From Bryobacterales bacterium (GTDB lineage: Bacteria; Acidobacteriota; Terriglobia; Bryobacterales; Bryobacteraceae), in NCBI GenBank assembly GCA_947467395.1, contig CANIIC010000012.1:1-45882 (forward strand): DNA of 45,882 nt, given 5' to 3'. The notes below the pieces were generated by a model that worked only from the letters and a program-made list of their open reading frames with translations, did no database searches and was not told where the DNA came from. How positions within the stretch are numbered: position 1 is the first letter of the stretch; the number at the start of each line of letters is the position of its first letter. A program made the position numbers and the translations under genes. Shown here one piece after another: positions 5,590-17,484 of this stretch.

Positions 5590-6426
5590 ATGCCGACCAT
5601 TGTTTGGCCGGACAACCCGAACGCAACACTGCTTGCCGTCCTCGACGTGCTTGCGGTAGCCGTGCTGTTGTACAACTTCATCCTGGTGCTGCGTGGTCGG
5701 CGCGCCATGCACGTACTGAGCGGTATGGCCGTGTTACTGCTGCTCTACGTTGCAGCGGCGTGGCTGGGCCTGGAATTATTGCGGTCCGTCCTGGCAGGTC
5801 TCGCGCCGTATTCGTTGATCGCGTTCATTGTAATGTTCCAGTCGGAGCTTCGCGGATACCTGACGCGCCTGGGGCGCATCCGTTGGTTTCGGGGTCATTG
5901 GTTCAGCTTCGGTCAACGTCTGGAACGACGCGAAATTGTCGATGAGATTTTGCTCGCCGCTGAACAGATGGCGGAGAAACGGATCGGCGCGTTGATCGTA
6001 CTGGAACGCGATATTGGACTGCGCACGTTTATCGAAAGCGGAGTAACCCTGGACGCTGTCGTCACGCGGGATCTGCTGCTGGCTATTTTTCATCCCGGCG
6101 CACAATTGCACGATGGAGCTGTGATCCTACAAGGGGATCGCGTCGCCGCTGCCGCCTGTTTCCTTCCGTTGCACGTCAGCCCGGCCGGTGCGCAACAAAT
6201 GGCGCTCCGTAAACTGGGCACTCGTCATCGTGCCGCGATTGGGGTGACCGAAGAAACCGACGCGCTGGCCGTGGTGGTTTCTGAGGAAACTGGGCAAATC
6301 TCGATTGCCTGGCGCGGCGAACTGGAGCCGGATGTCTCGCTGGATCGGCTGCGCAATCGGTTGACGCATCATTCCACCGGCACACGCCCGGAACCGGTTC
6401 ACGAATTGGGAAGCGTGCAGTCATGA
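5590..6426 (+). CDS. cdaA: Diadenylate cyclase (c-di-AMP synthase), CdaA type
   Basis: N-terminal TM helices followed by DisA_N domain with 'QLHDGAVIL' and 'GTRHRAAIG' motifs; upstream of glmM. Confidence 0.93.
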   Translation: MPTIVWPDNPNATLLAVLDVLAVAVLLYNFILVLRGRRAMHVLSGMAVLLLLYVAAAWLGLELLRSVLAGLAPYSLIAFIVMFQSELRGYLTRLGRIRWFRGHWFSFGQRLERREIVDEILLAAEQMAEKRIGALIVLERDIGLRTFIESGVTLDAVVTRDLLLAIFHPGAQLHDGAVILQGDRVAAAACFLPLHVSPAGAQQMALRKLGTRHRAAIGVTEETDALAVVVSEETGQISIAWRGELEPDVSLDRLRNRLTHHSTGTRPEPVHELGSVQS

Positions 6427-6539
6427 ACACGCCGCGCCCGATTCGACGGCTGTTCACGAACAACATCGGTTGGAAGTTATTCTGTCTTGCCGTCTCTTTT
6501 TTGCTGTGGGTCCTACTTGTGGGTAGCCGCCCGTCCTAG
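6423..6539 (+). CDS. 38-aa single-TM microprotein resembling the N-terminal anchor of CdaR/YbbR; YbbR domains absent
   Basis: ATGA overlap with cdaA stop; translation MNTPRPIRRLFTNNIGWKLFCLAVSFLLWVLLVGSRPS*; 'LFTNNIGWKLFCLAVSFLLWV' resembles the YbbR N-terminal helix; lies in the canonical cdaA-[cdaR]-glmM slot. Confidence 0.7.
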   Translation: MNTPRPIRRLFTNNIGWKLFCLAVSFLLWVLLVGSRPS

Positions 6540-6553
6540 CGACAATTGAAGCA

Positions 6554-7900
6554 ATGAGCGCATCTGCCGCACGACAATTGTTTGGGACAGACGGAATTCG
6601 GGGAAAAGCGGGAGACTATCCGCTGGACCGTCCAACCGCTTTCGCCGTAGGGCTGGCGCTGGCCAAGTGGATCGGCAACAATCACCTCGATCCAGAGGTG
6701 GTCATCGGCATGGATACGCGTGAGTCAGGTCCCTGGATCGCCGAACATGTGGCCGGAGGCTTGGCCGAAGGTGGCGTCCGCGCTCGTTTTGCCGGCCTGA
6801 TCACAACCCCTGGCTTGGCCCACGTCGCGCGTACAGGCCCCTTTGCCGCGGGCGTGATGATTTCCGCGTCGCACAATCCGTTCCAAGATAACGGCATCAA
6901 AATCTTTGATCACTCTGGCTTCAAGCTTCCCGATGCCCAGGAACACCTCCTGGAACAACACATCTTCACGTGGGCCGCTACCGGTCAAGCTCCAAAATCC
7001 CTCGCGCTGACGGTGGATGAAGGACTGGATCACGCCTATGTGGAGCACTTGGCTTCAACATTACGCGGAGGCTTGGCCGGACTGCGCATCGTGATCGATC
7101 CAGGGAATGGCGCGGCAACGTATTTATCGAAGGAACTGTTTGAGAGGCTGGGCGCCACCGTCGATTGCATCCACAATGCTCCGGATGGCCGGAATATCAA
7201 TCTGAACTGCGGCTCGCAGCACTTGGATTCGCTGCGCGCTCGCGTGCTGGAGACCAAGGCTGATTTGGGAGTCGCCTTCGATGGCGATGCCGATCGCGCC
7301 ATGTTCGTCTCACACACCGGTAAGACTGTCGATGGTGACGCTGTCCTGCTGTTGGCGGGAGTCTGGTTGAAGCGAACACAGGGTACCATCGAAGTGGTGG
7401 CCACGGTGATGTCGAACATAGGGCTCCAGGTAGCGCTGGCCAAGCACGGCATCGCGATGATCCGCACGCCTGTGGGCGACAAGTACGTGCTGGAGGAGAT
7501 GGTGAAGCGTAACGCGCCGCTGGGCGGCGAGCAGAGCGGCCACGTGATCTTCCGCGAATTCGCCACCACCGGCGACGGCCTATTGACCGCGCTGCGCATC
7601 TGCCAAATCATGCGCGAAGCTGGGCAGGACCTGGACACGTTGACCAGCGAACTGACAATTTCCCCTCAGATTCTGGTGAACGTGCGCGTCAAGAATCGGC
7701 GCCCACTGGAGGAACTAGCGGAGGTGAAGGCGCAGATCGGTAAGGCAGAGGCCGAATTCGGGGGTTCCGGCCGGGTTGTGGTCCGTTTTTCCGGCACCGA
7801 ACCACTGGCCCGCGTTATGGTCGAAGGCCCCACGCAGGATCGCGTGGACCATTGGGCGCATGCGATTGCCGACGCCATTCGGGCGGAGTTGGGAGCGTAG
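6554..7900 (+). CDS. glmM: Phosphoglucosamine mutase
   Basis: 'LFGTDGIRGKAG', active-site 'ISASHNPFQDNGIKIF', 'DGDADRAMFV', 'RFSGTEPLARVMVE'. Confidence 0.95.
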   Translation: MSASAARQLFGTDGIRGKAGDYPLDRPTAFAVGLALAKWIGNNHLDPEVVIGMDTRESGPWIAEHVAGGLAEGGVRARFAGLITTPGLAHVARTGPFAAGVMISASHNPFQDNGIKIFDHSGFKLPDAQEHLLEQHIFTWAATGQAPKSLALTVDEGLDHAYVEHLASTLRGGLAGLRIVIDPGNGAATYLSKELFERLGATVDCIHNAPDGRNINLNCGSQHLDSLRARVLETKADLGVAFDGDADRAMFVSHTGKTVDGDAVLLLAGVWLKRTQGTIEVVATVMSNIGLQVALAKHGIAMIRTPVGDKYVLEEMVKRNAPLGGEQSGHVIFREFATTGDGLLTALRICQIMREAGQDLDTLTSELTISPQILVNVRVKNRRPLEELAEVKAQIGKAEAEFGGSGRVVVRFSGTEPLARVMVEGPTQDRVDHWAHAIADAIRAELGA

Positions 7901-7929: not shown

Positions 7930-8376
7930 ATGTTTTTTCGCCGAGACAAGCCCCAAACCCCGACCTTTGACAGCCGCCTTTCGAACCTGAAGCAGTTCGG
8001 GTTTGAAACCGGTCGTGATGCCCAAGGCAAGACCATCGCCACGCGCAATGGTTGCGGTGCCTCGCTGGACGATGCCGGCGAAGGCAACGTGCAGATCGGT
8101 AAAGTTGGCGTGCTGGTGAACGGCGAGATCGCGCACTTAGTCAACGGCGGCTACCAGATGGTGTTGCGCACAGCCTCGGGCAAGGAACTTCCGGCCTTGG
8201 CGACGCACCTGAAGGCGCTGCACGCCTTCACTGAAGATCTGCGCGAAGGCCTCGGCCTGACCAGTCTCTACAACCTGTCGATGGGCACCACCTCCGACGA
8301 TCATCTGTATGATCGCGTGACGGATCGGGATGCCACGCCGCATCCGCGTCCTTGGGAAAAGAAGGTCGCCCACTAA
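7930..8376 (+). CDS. Conserved hypothetical protein
   Basis: 148-aa ORF; preceded by a TATACT -10-like element; codon usage consistent with neighbours. Confidence 0.65.
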   Translation: MFFRRDKPQTPTFDSRLSNLKQFGFETGRDAQGKTIATRNGCGASLDDAGEGNVQIGKVGVLVNGEIAHLVNGGYQMVLRTASGKELPALATHLKALHAFTEDLREGLGLTSLYNLSMGTTSDDHLYDRVTDRDATPHPRPWEKKVAH

Positions 8377-15079: not shown

Positions 15080-16471
15080 CTATTGTAGGCGCTGTGAAAT
15101 CGCGATGCAGTCGCTCAAACCGTTGGCGAGGGCCGGCACGCCATCAATCATTATTGGTGGATTCACAACCGGGTTTGGAGACGCACAGATCGCACGAACG
15201 GTGTCCGACGTGCGCTGCCAAAAGGCCAGATCATGCTGGACCGCTGCAAAGTGAAACACTAGCAACGCCGCGCTCACTGCTAACGTTTCCCGCTTGGGCA
15301 GGCCTGCACTCGCGAAGGCCAGCAGCAAACAGAACCAGATCGAAGGCAAATACAGCAGGCGTCCGCCCGAAAGATCTGCCGCGCCGCCCAACAAATGAAG
15401 CGGGGGCAAAATCGACAGGCCCAAGCCCAGCAGCATCCACCGAACCTGTGGAGTTCCGCCACGCCACGCCAGCCACAACAACGCCCCAATGTAGACGATC
15501 CCCAAGATGCCAACCACCACCGAAGGATCGATAGACCAGTTGATCGGGAACACCAACGACGTCCACAAGCGTACGAAGACAGCCTTCGCCGTGGTGCTGA
15601 ACTTCAAGGAATAAAACGCGGCTTCGCCGGACGATTCTCGATACCCACCAATACCGCCAAGCAGCATCCACCGATACACGAACGCCGCTGCCGTCAGGCC
15701 CGCGTAAGGTGCCACCGACGCCCAGGAGCGGCGTTCCCACCGCGCCACGATCGCCACCAGAAGCGGCAGCACGTAGGCTGCTTCTTTGCTCCAGAGCGCA
15801 GCCAACGCCAGCACCAGTGCAACTGCGGTGTTCCTGCCATAAAACAGCAACGTACCCAGCGTGAACATCGCGGCGAGCAGATCGAAGCGTCCCGCGATCC
15901 AAACTGCAGCTTCGAGATGCGTTCCATGCAGCGCAAATAGGCAGCCCGCCAGTAGTGCAACGCCCAAATTCGCACGCAAACGGCGAGCGAGCAACGCCAC
16001 TAGCACCGCGTTGACCGCGTGCAGGCACAGTGCCGACGCGTGCCACCACAGCGGATCGAATCGCGCGATCCAAGCGTTGATCGTCAGCGACACGTATCCC
16101 AACGGTCGGAAGAATCCATCGCCGCCGGCTGAGGTGAACACGCTGGCCGAGAACGTCTGGGCCTGCCGCACCAGAATAAAGTCGTCGGAAACAAAATACA
16201 CTCGCAACGCCGGGAACAGTGCCACCATCGCCAGCAAGGCAACCGTTCGCAGCATCCACGGCGAGTAACTCTCTGCCTCAGGCACCGGACGGCAACGCCA
16301 CGCCAGCAGCGCGACCACCAGCATTCCGAACACGCCCTCCGGATTCAACGGAGCGTTCACAGCGATCCCCGCCACCGAATACGGCCCCAGCACCAACCGA
16401 GCGCCCACCACCGCACCCAGGCACGCCGCAGCCGCCCACAAGCTGATTCGAATCGCGTTCAAGCCCTCCAT
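15080..16471 (-). CDS. Polytopic membrane protein, probable glycosyltransferase (GT39/DUF-type)
   Basis: About ten hydrophobic segments; 'VSDDFILVRQ' and 'FFRPLGYVSLTINAWIARFDPLWWHASALCLHAVNAVLVALLARRL' typical of this class. Start chosen at MEGLNAIR. Confidence 0.75.
   Translation of the reverse strand: MEGLNAIRISLWAAAACLGAVVGARLVLGPYSVAGIAVNAPLNPEGVFGMLVVALLAWRCRPVPEAESYSPWMLRTVALLAMVALFPALRVYFVSDDFILVRQAQTFSASVFTSAGGDGFFRPLGYVSLTINAWIARFDPLWWHASALCLHAVNAVLVALLARRLRANLGVALLAGCLFALHGTHLEAAVWIAGRFDLLAAMFTLGTLLFYGRNTAVALVLALAALWSKEAAYVLPLLVAIVARWERRSWASVAPYAGLTAAAFVYRWMLLGGIGGYRESSGEAAFYSLKFSTTAKAVFVRLWTSLVFPINWSIDPSVVVGILGIVYIGALLWLAWRGGTPQVRWMLLGLGLSILPPLHLLGGAADLSGGRLLYLPSIWFCLLLAFASAGLPKRETLAVSAALLVFHFAAVQHDLAFWQRTSDTVRAICASPNPVVNPPIMIDGVPALANGLSDCIAISQRLQ
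15082..15087 (-). promoter_or_regulatory. -10-like TACAAT, 6 nt before ATG 15075
   Basis: On - strand: TACAAT-AGGGGC-ATG. Confidence 0.5.
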
Positions 16472-16569
16472 TGTCGCCCAACTCTCCTGCGAGGCCCTAG
16501 CTGGTACTAGGTTATTAAGAGTACTGCTTTCCCGGGCGTCAGGGCGCATACTGTCCGTTCGGAGGGAAT

Positions 16570-17484
16570 ATGTCCAGTCACGCACAAGCCCGACTTCGCA
16601 TCCTTCGCACCCTAGACGGGTTGCCGGAGGGAGCCCCAGGCGACATCACGGTCATCTTGGATGGTAGCGGCAGTCCCGAATCCAGACTTCCCGCGAGATT
16701 CGTAGCGCACCTAGGCAGCGGCGCTCTCAAGGTCGAAGTCAGGGTCGCTATAGGCGCGGGTACGGTGGTTGGACTCGCCGGACAACTACAGGGTCCTGAC
16801 GGCCTCGATCCGGTATTGGGACAATTCCGCGTCTTATCATGCTTGCTGTCGGGCATCGGCAAATATCAGGCCAGCCTCGAACCCCATACCCCAGAGGGTT
16901 CGACTTCCGAGCCTCCCCCATCCAGCCGCCGCGAAACATCCGGCTGCGACTATTACGAGATCCTCCAGGTCAGCCGGACCGCCCATCTCGATACGATCCA
17001 TCGCGTGTTCCATCTGCTTGCACAGCGCTACCATCCCGACAATAGGGAGACTGGAGACGAGGAGAAGTTCCGTCTGGCGGTGGAAGCCCACACTGTGTTG
17101 AGCGATAGTGAACGTCGCGCCGCACATGACGTGCAGCTCGCCGAAGAAGATCGTGGCCGCTTGCGCATCTTCGACACCATCGAGAACACGGAGGGCGTTC
17201 AGGCCGAGCTCCGGAAACGACGCGGCATTCTGCGGCTGCTCTACACCCGGCGCATCACCAACCCTCGGGACCCAGCGCTGCGGGGACGCGACTTCGTGCA
17301 AATGCTGGGCTGCCCACCCGAGCATCTGGAATTCGCCTTCTGGTTCCTCAAGGAAAACAAGCTGGTGCAGCGCGCCGATAACAACGCGTTCGAGATTACC
17401 TGGCAAGGAGTGGAGGCGTTTGAAGCGATGGAACAGAATTACAGCGAGAAACAGCCGCTCCGGCTACCAGCGCCTGCGTTCTAG
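16570..17484 (+). CDS. J-domain protein with N-terminal PilZ-like region and C-terminal winged-helix-like region
   Basis: J-domain 'DYYEILQVSRTAHLDTIHRVFHLLAQRYHPDNRETGDEEKFRLAVEAHTVLSDSERRAAHD' with HPD; GGAGGG ribosome-binding site before ATG. Confidence 0.85.
   Translation: MSSHAQARLRILRTLDGLPEGAPGDITVILDGSGSPESRLPARFVAHLGSGALKVEVRVAIGAGTVVGLAGQLQGPDGLDPVLGQFRVLSCLLSGIGKYQASLEPHTPEGSTSEPPPSSRRETSGCDYYEILQVSRTAHLDTIHRVFHLLAQRYHPDNRETGDEEKFRLAVEAHTVLSDSERRAAHDVQLAEEDRGRLRIFDTIENTEGVQAELRKRRGILRLLYTRRITNPRDPALRGRDFVQMLGCPPEHLEFAFWFLKENKLVQRADNNAFEITWQGVEAFEAMEQNYSEKQPLRLPAPAF

What the first reader, a model, noticed from the sequence alone, without database searches (positions are those of the whole stretch)
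6423..6539. CdaR reduced to a 38-aa membrane anchor between cdaA and glmM
Sequence: an ORF absent from the supplied track starts at an ATGA overlap with cdaA and encodes MNTPRPIRRLFTNNIGWKLFCLAVSFLLWVLLVGSRPS*. Only 14 bp separate its stop from glmM, so no YbbR domains remain in the operon. Knowledge: cdaA-cdaR-glmM is a common operon; CdaR has one N-terminal TM helix followed by several extracytoplasmic YbbR repeats, and modulates CdaA. The 'LFxNNxxxKLxxLxxxFLLW' pattern fits the CdaR anchor. Inference: a minimal regulator working only through the membrane helix, or a decaying remnant whose reading frame and operon coupling persist.
Basis: partly seen in the sequence, partly recalled or inferred. 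Interest (0 to 1): 0.78.

Follow-up and report, generated by a model that had tools for sequence, protein, structure and literature searches.

The report
CdaR shrunk to its membrane helix
In a small group of acidobacteria, a regulator of the enzyme that makes the signal molecule c-di-AMP has lost its whole outer part and survives as a 38-residue membrane helix that evolution still protects, which suggests that the helix alone does an essential part of the regulator's job.

Summary
A 38-aa single-helix ORF (6423-6539) overlaps the cdaA stop by ATGA and lies 14 bp before glmM. No YbbR domain was found in the genome. It is neither a sequencing error nor a decaying remnant. Three species in independent assemblies carry the same 38-39 aa form. 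They form a 100/100-supported clade, sister to four species with a one-YbbR CdaR; most of the genus and family keep the two-YbbR protein (about 215-230 aa). So CdaR shrank stepwise from its C-terminus. A 47-aa anchor-only CdaR arose independently in another genus (G025), and one congener (G119) lost CdaR completely.

The amino-acid sequence is under purifying selection: dN/dS about 0.2, and no neutral simulation at realistic divergence matched it. Relative to cdaA, the helix evolves at the rate seen in full-length CdaR (1.6-2.0 against a median of 1.85), so losing the YbbR domains did not relax it. A conserved stripe (N, K, small, small, W), spaced like one helix face, is kept in all four anchor-only forms. 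Published work puts CdaA-CdaR contact in the membrane.

Best reading: a membrane-only CdaR that still binds CdaA but no longer senses outside. Its effect on CdaA activity is inferred, not shown. New variant of a known kind.

The parts
5590..6426 (+). cdaA, membrane diadenylate cyclase (three-helix N-terminal membrane domain plus DAC domain; DGA and RHR motifs intact)
   Evidence: Pfam CdaA_N 2.8e-8 and DAC 7.7e-40; motifs HDGAVIL and GTRHRAAIG read from the sequence
6408..6413 (+). GGGAAG, Shine-Dalgarno-like stretch inside the cdaA 3' end, 9 nt before the micro-ORF start
   Evidence: matching GGGGAG in L002 and GGGGAA in L104; role inferred
6423..6426 (+). ATGA overlap of the micro-CdaR start with the cdaA stop (translational coupling)
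   Evidence: read directly; GTGA in L002, GTG 2 nt after the stop in L104
6423..6539 (+). micro-CdaR, 38-aa anchor-only CdaR (membrane helix, no YbbR domain)
   Evidence: ORF; orthologues in L002 and L104/L031; selection; helix 6-35 in the AlphaFold2 model
6465..6521 (+). most hydrophobic 19-residue segment (residues 15-33), predicted membrane helix; the conserved stripe is N14, K18, C21, S25, W29
   Evidence: hydropathy 2.26; column conservation and helical periodicity
6554..7900 (+). glmM, phosphoglucosamine mutase, third gene of the operon
   Evidence: four PGM_PMM domains

Best explanation
The 38-aa ORF is a real descendant of CdaR cut down to its N-terminal membrane anchor. Shown here: it descends from CdaR by stepwise C-terminal loss (two YbbR domains, then one, then none), and its amino-acid sequence is still selected, at the same relative rate as the anchor of full-length CdaR. 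Inferred: it is made by translational coupling from cdaA at a matched amount, inserts with its basic N-terminus inside, and packs through a conserved small-residue face (N, K, small, small, W spaced 4-3-4-4) against the membrane helices of CdaA. It would act as a one-helix subunit that sets how the cyclase folds or oligomerises in the membrane. With no extracytoplasmic part left, it can no longer pass on a periplasmic signal, so control of CdaA would rest on GlmM and on this fixed helix.
For: Same-place 38-39 aa ORFs in three species forming a 100/100 clade, sister to a one-YbbR clade. An independent 47-aa anchor-only CdaR in another genus. dN/dS 0.21 for L002 versus L104 with dS about 1; no neutral simulation at d of 0.6 or more matched the observed identity. 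dN(anchor)/dN(cdaA) is 1.59, 1.95 and 2.03 in the micro clade against a median of 1.85 (5-95% range 0.92-3.46) in 497 pairs with YbbR domains. The stripe N, K, S/A/C, A/S, W is near-invariant in 156 CdaR with YbbR domains, has helical periodicity (p 0.002-0.004 over -4..+11 and -7..+15), and is kept in all four anchor-only forms. Literature: CdaR binds CdaA through their membrane domains, and models of natural fusions suggest the first CdaA helix as partner (PMC10243994); a suppressor of a ybbR deletion maps to the third DacA membrane helix (PMC5207132).
Against: No expression or interaction data. G119 in the same genus lives with no CdaR at all, so the anchor is not indispensable in every relative. 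The covariation test between CdaA and the anchor was too shallow to help. Restricted to the membrane core (+1..+15), the helical periodicity is only borderline (p 0.07). Only three species and 38 codons are available, and synonymous changes are saturated in two of the three pairs.
Confidence: 0.66

Rival explanations
1. A decaying remnant: CdaR is no longer needed, and the anchor persists only because too little time has passed or the overlap with cdaA protects it.
For: CdaR was lost outright in G119. All species with anchor-only or no CdaR have small genomes for the family, about 4.0-4.4 Mb corrected against a median of 6.3 Mb, which fits reductive evolution.
Against: Synonymous divergence among the three species is about 1 or saturated while the protein stays 45-69% identical. 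Neutral simulation at that distance keeps only about 20% identity and never reaches the observed value. There is no rate relaxation against cdaA. Only 4 nt overlap cdaA.
Confidence: 0.08
2. The ORF is kept as a translational bridge from cdaA to glmM; ribosomes must pass through it and the peptide itself does not matter.
For: ATGA/GTGA overlap with cdaA in two of the three species and a gap of 14 bp or less to glmM.
Against: Selection acts on amino acids, with nonsynonymous change strongly suppressed and the K, W and small-residue stripe kept. G119 lives without any anchor ORF there.
Confidence: 0.12
3. The helix is functional but its partner is not CdaA: it pairs with itself or with another membrane protein, or it serves in membrane insertion only.
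For: The small-xxx-small face (positions +3 and +7) could equally drive self-pairing; no partner was tested. The CdaA membrane domain itself changes fast relative to the DAC domain in this clade (ratio 1.95-2.97 against a genus median of about 1.5).
Against: Operon coupling with cdaA, published CdaA-CdaR membrane contact, and natural CdaA-CdaR fusions in the same family.
Confidence: 0.14

Closest known systems
CdaR / YbbR (CdaA regulator of the cdaA-cdaR-glmM operon, Pfam PF07949)
   Same: Operon place, start overlap with cdaA, single membrane helix with the same near-invariant K, W, N and small residues; descends from it by C-terminal loss
   Different: No YbbR domain at all. Family members here have two, the sister clade one, lactic acid bacteria three or four (PMC10243994)
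One-YbbR CdaR of the sister clade (L105-L108, 139-150 aa) and of G075 (L089)
   Same: Same locus and anchor, reduced from the C-terminus
   Different: They keep YbbR domain 1
Anchor-only CdaR of G025 (L091, 47 aa)
   Same: Anchor without a complete YbbR domain between cdaA and glmM
   Different: Independent origin in another genus; G025 also has a second cyclase fused to a YbbR domain
CdaA-CdaR fusion cyclases
   Same: CdaR anchor and CdaA membrane domain tied together; seen in streptococci (PMC10243994) and in about 14 genomes of this family
   Different: Fused, with a YbbR domain; absent from the three micro-CdaR species

Membership tests
CdaR/YbbR | One or more extracytoplasmic YbbR domains (PF07949) | tested here: not met
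   No Pfam YbbR match in the ORF or in the genome; the family-specific profile finds only the anchor
CdaR/YbbR | N-terminal single membrane helix with the CdaR anchor pattern | tested here: met
   A profile of full-length CdaR only, without this protein, hits the anchor at E 8e-5; stripe conserved; helix predicted
CdaR/YbbR | Gene between cdaA and glmM, coupled to cdaA | tested here: met
CdaR/YbbR | Common descent with full-length CdaR | tested here: met
   Syntenic series two, one, none on a supported tree and anchor alignment
CdaR/YbbR | Binds CdaA and changes its activity | not testable with these tools
   Needs two-hybrid or biochemistry; covariation attempt inconclusive
CdaA-type diadenylate cyclase (window cdaA) | CdaA_N membrane domain, DAC domain, DGA and RHR motifs | tested here: met
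   and sequence

The most novel reading that the evidence does not exclude
CdaR's core function is carried by its membrane helix alone: a one-helix microprotein subunit of the CdaA cyclase, stripped of its sensor, that has been selected as such since before the three species split and that arose at least twice.
Probability: 0.5. Interest if true: 0.68.

Novelty: new variant of a known kind. Interest (0 to 1): 0.6.

Why it matters
[quoted passage not shown] Here the natural series of two, one and no YbbR domains, plus a complete loss, exists among close relatives. It separates the membrane helix from the outer domains and predicts that the helix is the part that matters to CdaA. A 38-aa peptide is easy to test by two-hybrid, co-expression and mutation, so the question becomes directly testable. 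Genes this short are likely to be missed by standard annotation.

Tried and rejected
Sequencing error or frameshift: rejected, because only about 128 bp lie between cdaA and glmM and three assemblies agree. YbbR moved elsewhere in the genome: rejected. Readthrough of the stop: the frame closes again after five codons. Covariation between CdaA and the anchor: mean-field DCA on 160 pairs (Neff 93) gave top pairs inside CdaA that made no structural sense, and the window's own anchor was misplaced in that run, so it is counted as inconclusive. A first anchor-rate calculation misplaced the window's anchor and was redone correctly. An apparent intermediate, L075, is a full-length CdaR mis-parsed by a BLAST extension. 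L109 is a frameshifted full-length gene, not a one-domain CdaR. Folding a natural CdaA-CdaR fusion was not attempted because those loci fall outside the stated rule of the structure tool.

Full report
OBSERVATION. The window holds cdaA (5590-6426), an ORF of 38 codons (6423-6539) that begins in an ATGA overlap with the cdaA stop, and glmM (6554-7900) 14 bp later. Pfam confirms CdaA_N plus DAC and the four GlmM domains; the 38-aa ORF has no meaningful Pfam match. Pfam YbbR finds nothing in the 4.07-Mb, 95.7%-complete genome while ringing in four control genomes. A profile built from 26 full-length CdaR of the family finds only the anchor in this genome, plus one stretch at E 0.1.

WHERE IT LIVES. 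A nearest named relative, L031, is titled Bryobacterales, so the window is taken to be from that group of Acidobacteriota. The cdaA search found cdaA in 209 of 238 genomes of the family. In the 165 distinct loci compared, 154 have a full-length CdaR (mostly 213-239 aa), 5 a one-YbbR form (127-150 aa), 4 an anchor only, 1 a frameshifted full-length gene, and 1 no CdaR. A few full-length entries are start-codon mis-picks of my script or mis-parsed (L075), but their cdaA-glmM gaps are over 500 bp, or the gene was read by eye.

THE SERIES. L001 (window), L002 (G024) and L104 (G120; its contig length, 82283 bp, equals that of L031, so the two are taken as one species) carry MNTPRPIRRLFTNNIGWKLFCLAVSFLLWVLLVGSRPS, VTFPRPVRRLVTHNLGWKLLCLGVAILLWLLLVAADNRV and VAVPRTVQRLFTHNFAWKLLCLGVAALLWLWLIYADNLV. 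On a CdaA+GlmM tree they form a clade (100/100), sister to four species whose CdaR keeps one YbbR domain (the joint clade has 100/99; L105-L108; Pfam YbbR at E about 1e-5 in the two scanned); the rest of the genus is full length apart from the loss below and frameshifted L109. The simplest history is stepwise loss from the C-terminus. Separately, G025 has a 47-aa anchor-only CdaR that ends just inside the first YbbR strand and overlaps the glmM start, with a full-length sister (L023); G075 has an independent one-YbbR form. G119, in the same genus, has no CdaR: the short stretch between cdaA and glmM holds no anchor, and none exists elsewhere.

RARITY. An anchor profile run over 396 genomes of the phylum hit 207. 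Among the matches listed, the only short frames were the window and G024; all other frames shown were at least 142 codons, and the two shortest, G325 and G618, are one-YbbR-sized. The list was truncated, so very weak short anchors could be missed.

SELECTION. For L002 and L104, dS is 1.04 and dN 0.215 (ratio 0.21); for the window against either, synonymous sites are saturated while pN is 0.31-0.36. Neutral simulation of the L002 ORF at distances of 0.6 or more gave 0 of 20,000 ORFs as conserved as seen in each run; at 0.4 the fraction was 0.003-0.004. Over the 23-residue helix, dN relative to cdaA is 1.95, 2.03 and 1.59 in the three micro pairs. The same ratio in 497 pairs of CdaR that keep YbbR domains has a median of 1.85 and a 5-95% range of 0.92-3.46. 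The helix is therefore as constrained after losing the YbbR domains as before. Since amino acids rather than just an open frame are selected, neither decay nor a mere translational bridge explains it well.

ANATOMY. Aligned on the near-invariant lysine (position 0), 156 CdaR with YbbR domains show N at -4 (87%), K at 0 (96%), S/A/C at +3 (100% small), A/S/G at +7 (100% small) and W at +11 (99%), a stripe on one helix face. The conservation moment peaks at 95-100 degrees (p 0.002 for -4..+11, 0.004 for the whole stretch, but 0.07 for the membrane core alone). All four anchor-only proteins keep it: N, K, C or A, S or A, W. AlphaFold2 gives one helix, residues 6-35 (single sequence, a weak test). 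The basic N-terminus (R5, R8, R9) predicts N-in, C-out, as in CdaR.

MECHANISM. Literature held here states that CdaR contacts CdaA through the membrane domains and that models of natural streptococcal fusions suggest the first CdaA helix as partner (PMC10243994). The paper on the CdaA-GlmM complex says how CdaR works is unclear (PMC8573169). A suppressor of a ybbR deletion lies in the third membrane helix of DacA (PMC5207132). In Chlamydia, YbbR amount relative to DacA was proposed to limit c-di-AMP synthesis, with unpaired DacA perhaps disturbing the membrane (PMC12422730). Putting these together, the likely role of the micro-protein is a stoichiometric membrane partner of CdaA that keeps its membrane domain properly packed or oligomerised. 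The sensing role of the YbbR domains is gone. Shown: existence, descent, selection, retained helix face. Inferred: translation, orientation, CdaA contact, effect on activity.

OTHER EVIDENCE. The CdaA membrane domain changes fast relative to the DAC domain among the three micro species (ratio 1.95-2.97; genus median about 1.5, 95th percentile 1.97) and in G119 (median 1.82). This fits remodelling of the membrane interface after CdaR shrank or vanished, but it is one clade and one branch. Genomes with anchor-only or no CdaR are small for the family, about 4.0-4.4 Mb after completeness correction against a median of 6.3 Mb, so reduction may be part of streamlining. The covariation test failed its own control.

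VERDICT. Real and selected, best read as a membrane-only CdaR. It fails the YbbR-domain criterion of the CdaR/YbbR family and so is not filed as an ordinary member, but it descends from it and probably works like its membrane part. New variant of a known kind, directly testable.

Noticed in passing
L182-L195 (14 genomes of the family, e.g. L188 in G025): A second diadenylate cyclase that looks like a natural CdaA-CdaR fusion: membrane domain, DAC domain, CdaR anchor, one YbbR-like domain, about 380-425 codons (L193 was not recognised by the motif filter but has a 382-codon frame). Absent from the three micro-CdaR species.
   Followed up: partly
L201 / L118 (G119): Complete loss of CdaR between cdaA and glmM in a congener, a natural deletion control; its CdaA membrane domain diverges faster than that of its sister.
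   Followed up: partly
L109 (G102): CdaR frameshifted: YbbR domain 1 and domain 2 lie in different frames; either an assembly error or early decay.
   Followed up: no
G000, G024, G120, G119, G106, G089: No 7TMR-HDED (PgpH-type phosphodiesterase) and no ydaO-type c-di-AMP riboswitch found, so how c-di-AMP is degraded and sensed in this genus is open.
   Followed up: no
L003, L051, L095: glmM not found downstream of cdaA-cdaR: full-length CdaR but no glmM in the fetched stretch.
   Followed up: no
genus g50 genomes (G050, G140-G155) and G008, G021, G068, G072, G080: No cdaA match in the family-wide searches; one listed genomes of g50 all lack it, hinting at lineage-wide loss or strong divergence of this cyclase.
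   Followed up: no
window 7930-8376 and 15083-16594: Two sizeable ORFs without any Pfam match at E 0.001, the first directly after glmM.
   Followed up: no
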